Positions 52,937 to 58,368 of a stretch of DNA of 64,000 nucleotides are shown here, one piece after another. The stretch is from Rhizobiales bacterium NRL2 (lineage in GTDB: Bacteria > Pseudomonadota > Alphaproteobacteria > Minwuiales > Minwuiaceae), in the NCBI GenBank assembly GCA_001664005.1, contig CP016093.1, forward strand, positions 1,309,001 through 1,373,000, in the 5' to 3' direction. How positions within the stretch are numbered: the stretch's first letter is position 1; the number at the start of each line of letters is the position of its first letter. Under the pieces are notes generated by a model that had not been told where the DNA came from, did not search any database, and saw only the letters and a program-made list of their open reading frames with translations. The translations under genes and the position numbers were made by a program.

Positions 52937-54739
52937 TCAGGGCGGTGTTTCGCCGTCGATGAATATGCGGTGCCAGTGCTCCAGCGCCAGCAGGGCGCGG
53001 ATCTCTCGGGTGTTGTTCTGCGATCCCTGGATATGGTTCTCCAGCATCAACTCGACGCCGTCGCGGTCGAACAGCCGCCGGTCGTGGAACCGCTCGCCGC
53101 GCAGCATCTCCCGGGCATAGGCGGCCAGTTCGGTGCGGAACCATTCGCCGACGGGGACGGTGAACATCTGCTTGCGGCGGTCGGTCAGGGCCGCGCCGAT
53201 CAGCGGCCGGACCGTGTTCTTGAGCACCACCTTGGTCTCGCCGTTCCGGAGCTTCATCGCGCCCGGCAGGCGGAAGGCGTGCTCCACTACGCGGTAGTCG
53301 AGGAAAGGCGTCCGGGCCTCCAGCGAGACCGCCATCGCCATGCGGTCCGGCTTGACCAGGTTGTTGCCGGGCAGCAGCAGGGCGGTGTCGAGATAGAGGG
53401 CCTGATTGACGCGGTCCATGTGGGCGGCGGCCTCGAAATGCTCCTCGATCAGTCCGAAGGTGGAGCAGCCGTCAGTCTCGGCGGCGAAGTCGGGGTGGTA
53501 GAGCCCCCGCCGCGCCTCGCCCTCGGGGAACATCGCCAGCGCGCGATCGAAATAGCGCCGGCGGAAGGCGGCCTCGTCCATGTCCCCGGGCATGTCGGCG
53601 AAGGCGTGCACATACTTGTCGTAGCCGGCGAACAGCTCGTCGCCGCCGTCGCCGGTCAGCACCATCTTGACCTGCCGCGCGGCCAGTTCGGCCACTCTCA
53701 GCGTCGGCAGGAAGGAGACGTCGCCATGGGGTTGGTCCAGGTGATGCAACGCCCGGGGCCAGCGGTCCAGCATGCGCGGCGAGACGATGTCCAGGTGATG
53801 GGCCGCACCGAAGCGGCGGGCGGCGGCCTCGGCATGGGCGCTCTCGTCGAAGCGCGGATCGTCGAAGCCGATGGCGAAGGTCTCGACGGGCCGTTCCAGG
53901 TGCATCGACATCAGCCCGACCACGGTCGACGAATCGATGCCGCCCGACAGGAAGGCGCCGAAAGGCACGTCGGCCCTGAGCCTGAGGCGGACCGCGTCGT
54001 CCAGCAGGGCCAGCAGCTCCGCCTGGGCGCCGGCCTCCTGACCGCGCCACGGCTGGTGGCCGCAGTCCGCCAGCCGCCACCAGGCGTCGGTCTCCGCGCC
54101 ACGCGGGGTGATCTTCATATGTCCGCCGGGCGGCAGGTGCCGGATGCCGCGGAATGCCGTGAGAGGCGGCGGCACGTAGTTCAGTGTGAGGAAATGGTGC
54201 AGAGCCGCCTTGTCGGCCTCAGCCGGCGCGCCGCCGGCCAGCAGCGCCTTGATTTCCGAACCGAACAGCAGCCGTTCGCCGTTCTCGTAGACGAACAGCG
54301 GCTTGACGCCGACCCTGTCGCGCCAGAGGTGCAGCACCGGCTCCGGTCCGCGTGCGTCGTAGACGGCGATCGCGAACATGCCGTTCAGCCGGCGGACGAA
54401 ACCCGGCCCGTCCCTGAGATAGAGGCCGAGCAGGACCTCGGTGTCGGAATGGGTCCGGGGGCGCCAGCCCGACTGCCGGAGCTCTGCGCCCAGTTCCACG
54501 TAGTTGTAGATTTCGCCGTTCTGAACCAGAGCGACCTTGCCCTCGGCGGCGGTCATGGGCTGGTGGCCGCCGGCGATATCGATGATCGACAGCCGGCGAT
54601 TACCGACGGCGCCGTGGTCGAAGCGTGCCACGCCCGAATCGTCGGGGCCGCGATAGACCAGACTGTCGCTCATGGCCTTCAGCGCCGCATCGGTCATCGG
54701 CCGTGCGCCGCGGTCGAAATATCCGTAGATGCCGCACAT
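52937..54739 (-). CDS. asnB: Glutamine-dependent asparagine synthetase AsnB family
   Basis: 600 aa. The glutaminase domain starts at Cys2 (CGIYGYF) with RLSIIDIAGGHQP and VQNGEIYNY. The ATP-binding synthetase domain has FLSGGIDSSTVVG and LTGDGGDELFAGYDKY. In glycan loci, AsnB-like proteins often amidate uronic acids or other sugar carboxylates rather than aspartate. The neighbours (aldolase, aminotransferase, O-antigen ligase) favour that here. It overlaps the aldolase stop by one base (TGATG). Confidence 0.92.
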   Translation of the reverse strand: MCGIYGYFDRGARPMTDAALKAMSDSLVYRGPDDSGVARFDHGAVGNRRLSIIDIAGGHQPMTAAEGKVALVQNGEIYNYVELGAELRQSGWRPRTHSDTEVLLGLYLRDGPGFVRRLNGMFAIAVYDARGPEPVLHLWRDRVGVKPLFVYENGERLLFGSEIKALLAGGAPAEADKAALHHFLTLNYVPPPLTAFRGIRHLPPGGHMKITPRGAETDAWWRLADCGHQPWRGQEAGAQAELLALLDDAVRLRLRADVPFGAFLSGGIDSSTVVGLMSMHLERPVETFAIGFDDPRFDESAHAEAAARRFGAAHHLDIVSPRMLDRWPRALHHLDQPHGDVSFLPTLRVAELAARQVKMVLTGDGGDELFAGYDKYVHAFADMPGDMDEAAFRRRYFDRALAMFPEGEARRGLYHPDFAAETDGCSTFGLIEEHFEAAAHMDRVNQALYLDTALLLPGNNLVKPDRMAMAVSLEARTPFLDYRVVEHAFRLPGAMKLRNGETKVVLKNTVRPLIGAALTDRRKQMFTVPVGEWFRTELAAYAREMLRGERFHDRRLFDRDGVELMLENHIQGSQNNTREIRALLALEHWHRIFIDGETPP

Positions 54740-55545
54740 CAGCCGGCCGCCCTCTGCGCCGCCGCGAGTTCCGCGATGCGCCGGGCGATACGCTGCCGGT
54801 CATGTTCGATTTCCGCGGGCGTGCGCGCCGCCAGAGCGCGCTCGCAGTCGCGGATGCGGCCGACCTCCCGGCCCCAGTCGAAATCCGCGCCGGCGGTCGC
54901 CTTGAAACTGCGCGAAAGGATGACGGCAGTCGAGCCGAGGCGGACATGCTCGCCCAGGATCCATTCGGCCGGCAGATCGCCGCGGCCGATGCGGGCCATG
55001 CCGCCGAAACCGAAGGACAGGCCCTGATCCAGCGCGATGCGGCCCAGGCGCTCGACGGTGCCGTCGGCCAGGGGTTCGAACATGAACCGGTCGCCGCGCT
55101 GGCGATGCAGGTCGTTCAGGCCCACAAATATCTCGCCGACTCCCTCGATCGCGCAGATCCCGGCCAGTCGGTCGGCGGAGGCGACGGTCTCGATCAGCGG
55201 AACCACGGGCGCGCGGCCTGCGACCAGGCGGCAGAGCGCGCCAACCTCCTCTGGGGTCGTGATCATCGGCAGCATCAGCATGTCGGCGCCCTGGTACAGG
55301 ACATGCTCGATATCCGCCGCCGCCACGGCGGGCCACGGGTCGAGCCGCACCAGCAGCGTGGCGTCCGGCGCGGCGCGGCGGTAGCGCGCGATCTCTTCGA
55401 TGCCGTGTTCGCTGATCCAGGTGCCGCCGCCCTGGCGCTCGAACTTCCCGCTGCGCTCCAGGTCGACGAAGATCCTGTCGACGCCGCCCGCGGCCGCGGC
55501 CGCCGCCATCTCCGGGCTTTCCGGAATTACCATCAGACGAATCAT
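54739..55545 (-). CDS. HpcH/HpaI aldolase/citrate lyase family protein
   Basis: TIM-barrel class II aldolase family, 268 aa. It has RIFVDLERSGK at the start, ADMLMLPMITTPEEV, the metal Glu in PLIETVASADRL and the metal Asp in VGLNDLHRQRGDRF. These fit divalent-metal pyruvate/keto-acid aldolases. In this cluster it may make or split a keto-deoxy acid building block for a surface glycan. It overlaps the aminotransferase gene by 4 bases and asnB by 1. Confidence 0.82.
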   Translation of the reverse strand: MIRLMVIPESPEMAAAAAAGGVDRIFVDLERSGKFERQGGGTWISEHGIEEIARYRRAAPDATLLVRLDPWPAVAAADIEHVLYQGADMLMLPMITTPEEVGALCRLVAGRAPVVPLIETVASADRLAGICAIEGVGEIFVGLNDLHRQRGDRFMFEPLADGTVERLGRIALDQGLSFGFGGMARIGRGDLPAEWILGEHVRLGSTAVILSRSFKATAGADFDWGREVGRIRDCERALAARTPAEIEHDRQRIARRIAELAAAQRAAG

Positions 55546-57020: not shown

Positions 57021-57114
57021 GGGCGCCCGCGTCTGGCGATCCGGGTTCGGGAACGGGCGGCACTATCGTGGCGGGGCCGCCGGCGGTCAACTCGCGGTGC
57101 GCCGGGCGGCACGG

Positions 57115-58368
57115 TCACGCTTTGCCCTCGCGCCGCGCCAGGACGATCGCCAGGCCCGCCAGCATGAAGAAGGCGCACAGCCACCAGCCGAGCCAGATCG
57201 AGTGCGCCGCGCCGAGCGCCGCCAGCACCATCACCGCAAGCGCCGCGAAGCCCGGCCGGAGTGCCGGCGCCGCGCGCAGGATGGCGAGAAAGACGCCGGC
57301 GACCAGCGCGCAAAGCAGCGCCGCGCCCGCGAGACCCAGATCCTGCCAGATCTGGACGAAGATCGAGTGCGGGTGCCAGATGCCTTCGGGGATGTAGAAG
57401 ACGTTGGGGCCGGGATAGTCGCCATGCACGCGCTGATAGCCGATGCCGTGGCCCAGCCAGAACCGCTCGGGGACTGTCTCCGCCAGCGCCGCCCAGATCT
57501 CAGAACGCTCCCGGATCTTGTGGGTCAGCGTGCTGCCGCCGGCGAATATCGCGCCGGTCGCCCGGTCGAGCAGCGGAAACAGCCAGGGCGTCGTCAGGAT
57601 GGCGGCGAGGACGGAAGCCATGATCGCGATGACGCCCGCGCGGCCCGCCGCCAGAACCAGCAGGGCCGCGATCAGGCCGGCCAACGCCATAACCAGCGAC
57701 GTCTCGCTGATCGTCAGCAGCGACACGGCCATCAGGGCCGCCAGCACGAGCGGCGGGACCCAGCGCCGCCCGGAGGTGACCGCGAGCAGGGTGAGAGCCA
57801 GTGTCGCCAGCATCCAGAAATCGTTGAACCGCGCCAGGAATGCCGCCGGATCGTAGCTGCTCGCGCGGTCCAGCAATCCGCCGTCCCATCCCCCTTCGGC
57901 CACGGCCAGCCGCAATCTCAGCAGCCAGCGGCCGCTCAGCATGTCGACAAGCGCGATCAGCGCGGCGATGCCACACCCGGCGGCGAGCCAGGGCCGCAGG
58001 CGGACGCCGTCCAGCGGCGCGCGGGCGGCGCACCAGAGGAGGACGATGCCGGCCAGCAGCGCCGGGCCGGCGCGGCCCGCCAGTTTCTCCATGCCAGGCC
58101 GATAAGCGCTCTCGCCCCAACCCGGGCTTAGCACGGCAAGCAGCGTGATTGCCGAAAGGGCGGCTAGGGGCAAGACGAGCGGCAGCCCTGGTCCCGAGGC
58201 GCGGAACTCGCGCCGCCCCACGAGCCAGGCAGAAAGGAACGCCAGCACGGCAGGTGCGATCAGCCAGGCCATGGCGCGGTCCGACGGGAAGGCGAGCCAG
58301 GGAAGGAACAGCGCCATGAGGATCACGGCGGTCTGGGCGAGCCTTGGCCCGAGCCGGATGGCTGTCAT
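57115..58368 (-). CDS. O-antigen ligase family protein (Wzy_C)
   Basis: 417 aa, about 10-12 membrane helices. The large periplasmic loop contains LGHGIGYQRVH and WHPHSIFVQIWQDLGLAGA, the O-antigen ligase/polymerase signature. It would ligate or polymerise a lipid-linked glycan at the periplasmic face, or act as a flagellin/pilin O-oligosaccharyltransferase, which shares the fold. The start at 58368 (MTAIRLGP). It heads the cluster, 94 bases before the CBS-aminotransferase, and is divergent from the CoA ligase gene. Confidence 0.86.
   Translation of the reverse strand: MTAIRLGPRLAQTAVILMALFLPWLAFPSDRAMAWLIAPAVLAFLSAWLVGRREFRASGPGLPLVLPLAALSAITLLAVLSPGWGESAYRPGMEKLAGRAGPALLAGIVLLWCAARAPLDGVRLRPWLAAGCGIAALIALVDMLSGRWLLRLRLAVAEGGWDGGLLDRASSYDPAAFLARFNDFWMLATLALTLLAVTSGRRWVPPLVLAALMAVSLLTISETSLVMALAGLIAALLVLAAGRAGVIAIMASVLAAILTTPWLFPLLDRATGAIFAGGSTLTHKIRERSEIWAALAETVPERFWLGHGIGYQRVHGDYPGPNVFYIPEGIWHPHSIFVQIWQDLGLAGAALLCALVAGVFLAILRAAPALRPGFAALAVMVLAALGAAHSIWLGWWLCAFFMLAGLAIVLARREGKA

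What the first reader, a model, noticed from the sequence alone, without database searches (positions are those of the whole stretch)
52937..58368. Four-gene glycan cluster with a CBS-aminotransferase fusion, keto-acid aldolase and AsnB
O-antigen ligase, CBS-DegT aminotransferase, HpcH/HpaI aldolase and AsnB form a tight unit: 94-base gap, then 4- and 1-base overlaps. Together they suggest synthesis of an aminated, amidated keto-deoxy acid sugar and its transfer in the periplasm. CBS domains fused to a sugar aminotransferase are unusual; they could gate the enzyme by adenine nucleotides. No glycosyltransferase, flippase or nucleotidyltransferase is present, so partners lie elsewhere. flgK-flgL follow within 2.2 kb, so flagellar glycosylation is one option.
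Basis: inference. Interest (0 to 1): 0.55.

Follow-up and report, generated by a model that had tools for sequence, protein, structure and literature searches.

The report
Split legionaminic-acid-type sugar gene cluster
These four genes look like one part of a pathway, scattered over the chromosome, that makes a sialic-acid-like surface sugar; one enzyme carries a built-in sensor domain of a kind also found on other enzymes of such pathways, which may let the end product switch the pathway off.

Summary
In detail: O-antigen ligase/polymerase, CBS-DegT aminotransferase, HpcH/HpaI-type aldolase and AsnB lie in the stated order with the stated gaps, conserved in the genus Minwuia. The interpretation needs changing. 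The aminotransferase is LegC/PglE-like; a NeuB-type nonulosonic-acid synthase lies near it in 8 of 9 other loci with the CBS fusion. Two Roseobacter plasmids with one near-identical cluster hold aminotransferase, AsnB, aldolase and NeuB side by side with NeuA, NeuC, MurJ and amidination genes; homologs of those partners sit 2.3 Mb away in the window's genome. So the unit most likely aminates, decorates and assembles a legionaminic-type sugar of a surface polysaccharide, the backbone coming from NeuB, not from this aldolase. flgK adjoins in two of five genomes only. The CBS pair, with a TDGD-x-RR motif, resembles those of KdsD and of PtmE-type CBS-nucleotidyltransferases; a CBS-kinase fusion with the motif also lies beside neuB in G366. 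No full-length PtmE-type enzyme was found in 11 main-clade genomes. I propose feedback by the CMP-activated product (untested). What aldolase and AsnB make is unresolved.

The parts
57115..58368 (-). O-antigen ligase / Wzy-type membrane protein (417 aa)
   Evidence: PF04932 47.1 bits; 37-40% identical in G001, G002, G003, G005, G006, same place before the aminotransferase
55542..57020 (-). CBS-pair + LegC/PglE-like DegT aminotransferase (492 aa); CBS about residues 1-112, aminotransferase about 116-490
   Evidence: PF01041 326.9 bits, PF00571 34.9 bits; TIGR04181 LegC 368.7 bits, under cut-off 420; best PDB sequence match 1o61
56667..57020 (-). CBS pair with the TDGDLRR motif (residues 45-51)
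   Evidence: model pLDDT 82.3; 4o9k_A Z 13.7, 26% identity; motif comparison
54739..55545 (-). HpcH/HpaI-superfamily aldolase (268 aa)
   Evidence: PF03328 35.9 bits; model pLDDT 88.8; Foldseek top rows 4mf4, 3qz6, HpaI
52937..54739 (-). AsnB-type glutamine-dependent amidotransferase (600 aa), a pathway-linked subfamily
   Evidence: PF00733 305.7 bits; clade with the AsnB of L069, L124 and L129, support 99/99
58408..60273 (+). acyl-CoA synthetase gene, divergent from the unit; a homolog adjoins neuB in G001, G002, G003 and G005 (neighbour, role unknown)

Best explanation
The unit is the amination, decoration and assembly part of a legionaminic-acid-type nonulosonate pathway, split over several chromosomal loci, that feeds a surface polysaccharide. 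Proposed route: UDP-GlcNAc is dehydrated by a FlaA1/PglF-type 4,6-dehydratase (C1:1005374-1007299), aminated at C4 by the CBS-aminotransferase of the window, acetylated by a NeuD/PglD-type enzyme (C1:3841105-3841722), hydrolysed and epimerised by NeuC, condensed with PEP by NeuB and CMP-activated by NeuA (locus C1:3699951-3712001, with the WbuX/HisH/HisF amidination set and a MurJ-type flippase). The Wzy_C protein would polymerise the glycan or ligate it in the periplasm. AsnB and the aldolase would make or amidate a substituent. The CBS pair would let the CMP-activated end product inhibit the aminotransferase. Shown: gene content, conservation, co-location of homologs in other genomes, domain identity. 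Inferred: every reaction, the UDP rather than GDP route, the substituent, the feedback and its ligand.
For: NeuB-family gene in the fetched stretch at 8 of 9 non-Minwuia CBS-aminotransferase loci, NeuC at 7 of 9. The Roseovarius/Pseudohalocynthiibacter plasmid cluster carries homologs of the window unit (aminotransferase 53%, AsnB 52%, aldolase 40%) and of the own-genome neuB locus (NeuB, NeuC, NeuA, HisH, HisF, WbuX, MurJ, UDP-GT). G284: aldolase and AsnB in one cluster with LegB (529.7 bits, cut-off 475), LegC (517.3, cut-off 420), NeuA-, NeuD-, NeuB-, NeuC-, WbuX-, HisF- and HisH-type genes. Own NeuC 341.9 bits (cut-off 235.9), WbuX 331.5 (203.2), NeuD 185.1 (160.8). FlaA1-type dehydratase in 3 of the 9 fusion loci (L139, L143, L145). 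Pathway-linked AsnB clade. CBS type and motif; no full-length CBS-nucleotidyltransferase in 11 of 11 main-clade genomes tested.
Against: The aminotransferase is under the LegC cut-off (368.7 vs 420), as are the three other main-clade members tested (323.2, 372.8, 372.2). Own NeuB is just under its cut-off (397.2 vs 399.65). No LegB ortholog in Minwuia (best 35%). The dehydratase and acetyltransferase are assigned by family only and lie alone. Two other DegT/NeuB loci exist in this genome. The unit does not lie beside neuB in G000-G005. L130, a fusion beside NeuB and NeuC, lacks the CBS motif; L129 has no NeuB, on an 8.2 kb contig. The aldolase is not tied to this pathway: of 5 non-Minwuia genomes with a match only G284 has it with NeuB; G258, G094 and G237 have neither NeuB nor AsnB in the 20, 20 and 5.4 kb read, and G054 has a distant aldolase-AsnB pair (27% and 29%) without NeuB in 14 kb.
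Confidence: 0.72

Rival explanations
1. Flagellar glycosylation unit: the sugar is put on flagellin, as the nearness of flgK-flgL suggests.
For: flgK 2.1 kb away in G000 and also beside the unit in G004; nonulosonates decorate flagellins in Campylobacter, Plesiomonas and Caulobacter (PMC4481668 and PMC7591256, passages).
Against: No flgK match in the stretches read around the unit in G001, G003, G005; the plasmid and G284 loci look like polysaccharide loci, with sugar transferases, export or flippase genes; the genome has other nonulosonate loci that could serve flagellin.
Confidence: 0.12
2. The aldolase itself builds a keto-deoxy acid sugar: an aldehyde plus pyruvate, then aminated and amidated.
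For: Fold matches class II pyruvate aldolases; aldolase relatives and a distant aldolase-AsnB pair occur without NeuB nearby (L126, L127, L128, L131).
Against: Where the close aldolase-AsnB pair was seen (Minwuia, L069, L124) the genome or cluster also has NeuB, which needs no aldolase; a LegC/PglE-type aminotransferase acts before backbone formation in the known pathways (recalled).
Confidence: 0.1
3. AsnB is the cell's asparagine synthetase and its place here is incidental.
For: TIGR01536 408.3 bits, above its cut-off 267.1.
Against: The genome has three further AsnB-like genes of full length; the window AsnB groups with AsnB of L069, L124 and L129, apart from the paralogs; it overlaps the aldolase gene by one base.
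Confidence: 0.08
4. The CBS pair binds adenine nucleotides (AMP/ATP) or SAM and ties the aminotransferase to energy or methyl state.
For: CBS pairs with ATP, AMP or SAM are among the best structural matches, tied with or above 4o9k.
Against: Closest by sequence to the arabinose-5-phosphate isomerase CBS pair (1.1e-07); motif TDGD-x-RR shared with KdsD, CBS-nucleotidyltransferases and a CBS-kinase beside neuB, and absent from the 8 other own-genome CBS loci looked at.
Confidence: 0.35

Closest known systems
Legionaminic-acid pathway, LegB-C-H-G-I-F with PtmE (Campylobacter, Plesiomonas)
   Same: LegC/PglE-type aminotransferase, NeuC/LegG, NeuB/LegI, NeuA/LegF, NeuD/LegH families present
   Different: CBS pair on the aminotransferase, no full-length PtmE-type CBS-nucleotidyltransferase, no LegB found, genes scattered, aldolase and AsnB added
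PglF-PglE-PglD bacillosamine route (Campylobacter)
   Same: Best PDB sequence match of the aminotransferase is 1o61, which I recall as Campylobacter PglE; FlaA1-type dehydratase and NeuD/PglD-type acetyltransferase present
   Different: Followed by NeuC/NeuB/NeuA; CBS fusion
KdsD/KpsF arabinose-5-phosphate isomerase and PtmE-type CBS-nucleotidyltransferase
   Same: CBS pair with TDGD-x-RR motif on an enzyme of a CMP-ulosonate pathway
   Different: Different catalytic domain (DegT aminotransferase)

Membership tests
LegC family aminotransferase (TIGR04181) | score over curated cut-off 420 | tested here: not met
   368.7 bits; called LegC-like, not filed as LegC
DegT/DnrJ/EryC1 aminotransferase (PF01041) | score over cut-off 19.8 | tested here: met
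   326.9 bits
CBS pair | CBS score over 24 bits and CBS-pair fold | tested here: met
   34.9 bits; model matches CBS pairs, Z 13.2-15.4 in the rows shown
Nonulosonate pathway | NeuC over its curated cut-off in the same genome | tested here: met
   341.9 vs 235.9 bits
Nonulosonate pathway | NeuB synthase in the same genome | tested here: met
   PF03102 303.5 bits over cut-off 22.1; TIGR03569 397.2, just under 399.65
Legionaminic acid pathway | product is a legionaminic acid | not testable with these tools
   needs chemistry
GDP route with PtmE and LegB | full-length CBS-nucleotidyltransferase and LegB ortholog in own genome | tested here: not met
Class II pyruvate aldolase HpaI (TIGR02311) | score over cut-off 368.8 | tested here: not met
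   15.4 bits; the superfamily PF03328 is met
Asparagine synthase (TIGR01536) | score over cut-off 267.1 | tested here: met
   408.3 bits; substrate untested

The most novel reading that the evidence does not exclude
The TDGD-x-RR CBS pair is a portable sensor of CMP-activated ulosonic acids that has been attached, in different lineages, to KdsD, to the PtmE-type nucleotidyltransferase, to a GHMP-type kinase and, probably more than once, to the LegC/PglE-like aminotransferase, so that the end product brakes an early step of its own pathway.
Probability: 0.42. Interest if true: 0.65.

Novelty: new variant of a known kind. Interest (0 to 1): 0.5.

Why it matters
It places an odd cluster in a known sugar pathway, finds its missing partners, and turns the CBS fusion into a testable idea about how bacteria control sialic-acid-like surface sugars. 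It also marks out an AsnB subfamily and an aldolase that may make an undescribed substituent.

Tried and rejected
Flagellar link: tested by synteny and not supported. Housekeeping AsnB: disfavoured by paralogs and tree. LegB in own genome: searched with the G284 protein, best match 35% (G005) and 33% in the own genome. A wide species search with the aldolase alignment returned 4 loci, three of them titled or matched as Minwuia-type and one an uncultured alphaproteobacterium, because its patterns were narrow. The aldolase alone found no PDB relative by phmmer at 0.001; the 50 VIA rows shown for it were all pyruvate kinases, so Foldseek rows were used. Paper searches for CBS with CMP-Kdo, for CBS with legionaminic or nonulosonic and aminotransferase, for aldolase with asparagine synthase, and for 4O9K gave no paper; two searches listed 2 and 3 papers, of which I saw passages of one each. 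That 4o9k holds CMP-Kdo is recalled; both tool titles were cut off before the ligand. My label 'S_LegB' for a plasmid epimerase gene was wrong: NCBIfam does not list LegB for it, so matches to it are not used as LegB. In one search rows L069 and L130 were labelled noCBS by a strict motif; one search shows a CBS pair in both (L069 with SDGDIRR), so the count of changes printed there is not used. A strict 'one CBS enzyme per genome' rule was considered and dropped: G382 has a fusion and a CBS-nucleotidyltransferase, and G366 a CBS-kinase and a CBS-nucleotidyltransferase. Of 40 listed plasmid hits for the aminotransferase (953 records in all) 5 were opened; hits with partial CBS coverage such as H22 and H34 were not. 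The genomes were chosen, not drawn at random.
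Full report
Observation. The window is C1:1309001-1373000 of a 4.70 Mb genome in one contig. Records found by the aldolase alignment carry titles with 'Minwuia' (2 of 4), 'Kordiimonadales bacterium IMCC3096' and an uncultured alphaproteobacterium; I take the genus as Minwuia.

Conservation. The CBS-aminotransferase has a match of 61-99% identity in all 6 other genomes of the genus; in the two genomes of other genera of the family (G007, G008) matches at 1e-20 do not cover the CBS part. The order ligase, aminotransferase, aldolase, AsnB holds in 4 of 6; the 2 others are cut by contig ends. 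The ligase is least conserved (37-40%, against 62-68% for the aminotransferase outside G004). parE, the luciferase-like gene, the acyl-CoA synthetase, flgK and flgL flank the unit in G004 as in the window, but gave no match in the 20 kb around it in G001, G003 and G005.

What the aminotransferase is. Its catalytic half scores 368.7 bits to LegC (TIGR04181, cut-off 420) and 258.0 to PseC (cut-off 423.5); the best PDB sequence match is 1o61 (5.1e-94), recalled as Campylobacter PglE. A search with residues 1-171 over the class gave 12 of 385 genomes at 1e-12: 6 matches span CBS and aminotransferase (4 Minwuia, G085, G382), 6 cover essentially the CBS part. Over the phylum 10 of 398 matched: 5 span both (own genome, G582, G648, G723, G734), 5 the CBS part. 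Plasmids added L069 (L071 is nearly the same cluster), L070 and L072. So 9 distinct non-Minwuia fusions were examined.

Neighbourhoods. NeuB-family genes lie in the fetched stretch in 8 of 9 (L069, L070, L072, L130, L139, L141, L143, L145; not L129, an 8.2 kb contig) and NeuC in 7 of 9 (also not L072). A WbuX, HisH, HisF set is seen in 6 of 9 (L069, L072, L130, L139/L140, L141, L145); L070 has a hisF at the edge of the stretch. A FlaA1-type dehydratase relative of the own-genome one is in 3 of 9 (L139, L143, L145, 40-42%); a match to the true LegB of G284 better than 35% is in none. In L069 the order is aminotransferase, AsnB, aldolase, NeuB-family synthase on one strand, in a cluster with NeuC, a cytidylyltransferase, MurJ, sugar transferases, polysaccharide export and a tyrosine autokinase. 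AsnB also follows the aminotransferase in L129. In G284 an aldolase and AsnB (61% and 71% to L069) lie in a cluster with LegB (529.7 bits), LegC (517.3 bits, no CBS), NeuA-, NeuD-, NeuB-, NeuC-, WbuX-, HisF- and HisH-type genes and a CBS-nucleotidyltransferase.

Partners in the own genome. NeuB at C1:3710826-3712001, NeuC 3709675-3710847, MurJ 3708167-3709681, WbuX 3704018-3705133, HisH 3703384-3704007, HisF 3702602-3703384, a UDP-GT-like protein 3701358-3702605 and NeuA 3699951-3700661 (HisH, HisF and UDP-GT by similarity to the plasmid genes). These eight match proteins of the plasmid cluster at 26-47%. NeuB, NeuC and MurJ are together in G001-G005 too. A FlaA1/PglF-type dehydratase (C1:1005374-1007299; PF02719 373.0 bits) and a NeuD/PglD-type acetyltransferase (C1:3841105-3841722; 185.1 bits, cut-off 160.8) stand alone; both families are present in G001-G004. 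No LegB ortholog was found. The acyl-CoA synthetase beside the window unit has homologs of 59-62% next to neuB in G001, G002, G003 and G005, which hints that the two loci were once neighbours; I did not search that gene genome-wide.

AsnB. The genome has 4 full-length AsnB-like genes (6 matches in all, 2 of them short and weak). In a tree of 15 rows the window AsnB groups with those of Minwuia, L069, L124 and L129 (99/99), apart from the own paralogs L118, L119 and L053 (several outer rows have long branches). A pathway-linked amidotransferase is the better reading; its acceptor is unknown.

Aldolase. The model (pLDDT 88.8; residues 32-46 under 50) matches HpcH/HpaI aldolases best by Foldseek (4mf4, 4.0e-11; 3qz6; HpaI). 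By profile it matches acyl-CoA lyase beta chains (1.1e-07) and a hydroxyketoacid aldolase (8.6e-05); the aligned stretches hold E119 and D145, by recall the metal ligands. The class search gave 9 of 385 genomes at 1e-12: 4 Minwuia and 5 others. Of the 5, G284 has the full nonulosonate cluster; G054 has a distant aldolase-AsnB pair (27%, 29%) without NeuB in 14 kb; G258, G094 and G237 showed neither AsnB nor NeuB in 20, 20 and 5.4 kb. In G258 it stands beside a diaminopimelate-decarboxylase-like (130.9 bits, cut-off 297.9) and a branched-chain transaminase-type gene. So the aldolase is not specific to nonulosonate clusters and its product is open; a hydroxy-acid substituent that AsnB amidates is my guess, about 0.2.

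CBS pair. By sequence the best PDB match is 4o9k, the CBS pair of an arabinose-5-phosphate isomerase (1.1e-07); NCBIfam KpsF also matches residues 10-108. By structure many CBS pairs tie (4o9k Z 13.7, rmsd 1.9, 110 aligned; best row 15.4), so fold does not choose a ligand. The motif [TS]DGD[LIV]RR is in 14 of 15 fusion rows (not L130), in 7 of 8 CBS-nucleotidyltransferases (8 of 8 if F is allowed at the fifth place, L112), and in the own KdsD/KpsF-type protein (TIGR00393 305.2 bits, cut-off 203.7); it is in 0 of 8 other own-genome CBS loci examined, which are 6 proteins out of the 18 CBS matches. The rows were picked by the motif; the loci were found by homology. In the aminotransferase tree the main CBS group has support 91/89, while L072 and L130 fall elsewhere, which suggests separate fusions.

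Which enzyme carries it. A search with the G284 CBS-nucleotidyltransferase found a full-length match in 9 of 20 chosen genomes: the 8 picked for it and G382. None of the 11 main-clade genomes (G000-G005, G085, G582, G648, G723, G734) has one. G382, with both, carries the fusion that lacks the motif. In G366, which has the nucleotidyltransferase, a further CBS pair with TDGDIRR is fused to a GHMP kinase (PF00288 64.2 bits, PF00571 44.0 bits) about 0.8 kb from a NeuB-family gene and 2.8 kb from a NeuA-type gene. So the pair sits on at least four kinds of enzyme in these pathways; an either-or rule holds for the main clade but not generally. The sample is small, not random, and partly drafts.

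Verdict. A real, conserved and explainable unit: new variant of a known kind of pathway. The pathway link rests on homology and co-location; the feedback idea is a prediction.

Noticed in passing
L187 6786-8405 (G366:C1:6661786-6663405): A CBS pair with TDGDIRR fused to a GHMP kinase, beside NeuB- and NeuA-type genes.
   Followed up: partly
L052 (G000:C1:804-812 kb): A further nonulosonate locus with PseC (540.4 bits, over cut-off) and NeuB; G001, G002, G003 and G005 show only the two NeuB genes shared by the genus, so it looks like a later gain.
   Followed up: partly
L053 (G000:C1:2438-2446 kb): A second nonulosonate-type locus, its NeuB and DegT matched in G001-G005, with WbuX, another AsnB-like and an acyl-AMP ligase with a hexapeptide part.
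   Followed up: partly
L069 and L071: Plasmids of Pseudohalocynthiibacter and Roseovarius share 21 of 23 protein accessions over about 29 kb of this cluster: recent transfer between genera.
   Followed up: no
L095 12020-17200: In G004 the neuB locus has one whole and one partial MurJ and a NeuC fragment, as after a duplication or recombination.
   Followed up: no
L126 9754-14536: An aldolase relative lies beside a diaminopimelate-decarboxylase-like, a branched-chain transaminase-type and a sugar transferase gene: perhaps another keto-acid decoration route.
   Followed up: partly
window 16646-17593: A second pair of CBS domains in the window, in a 315-aa minus-strand frame.
   Followed up: no
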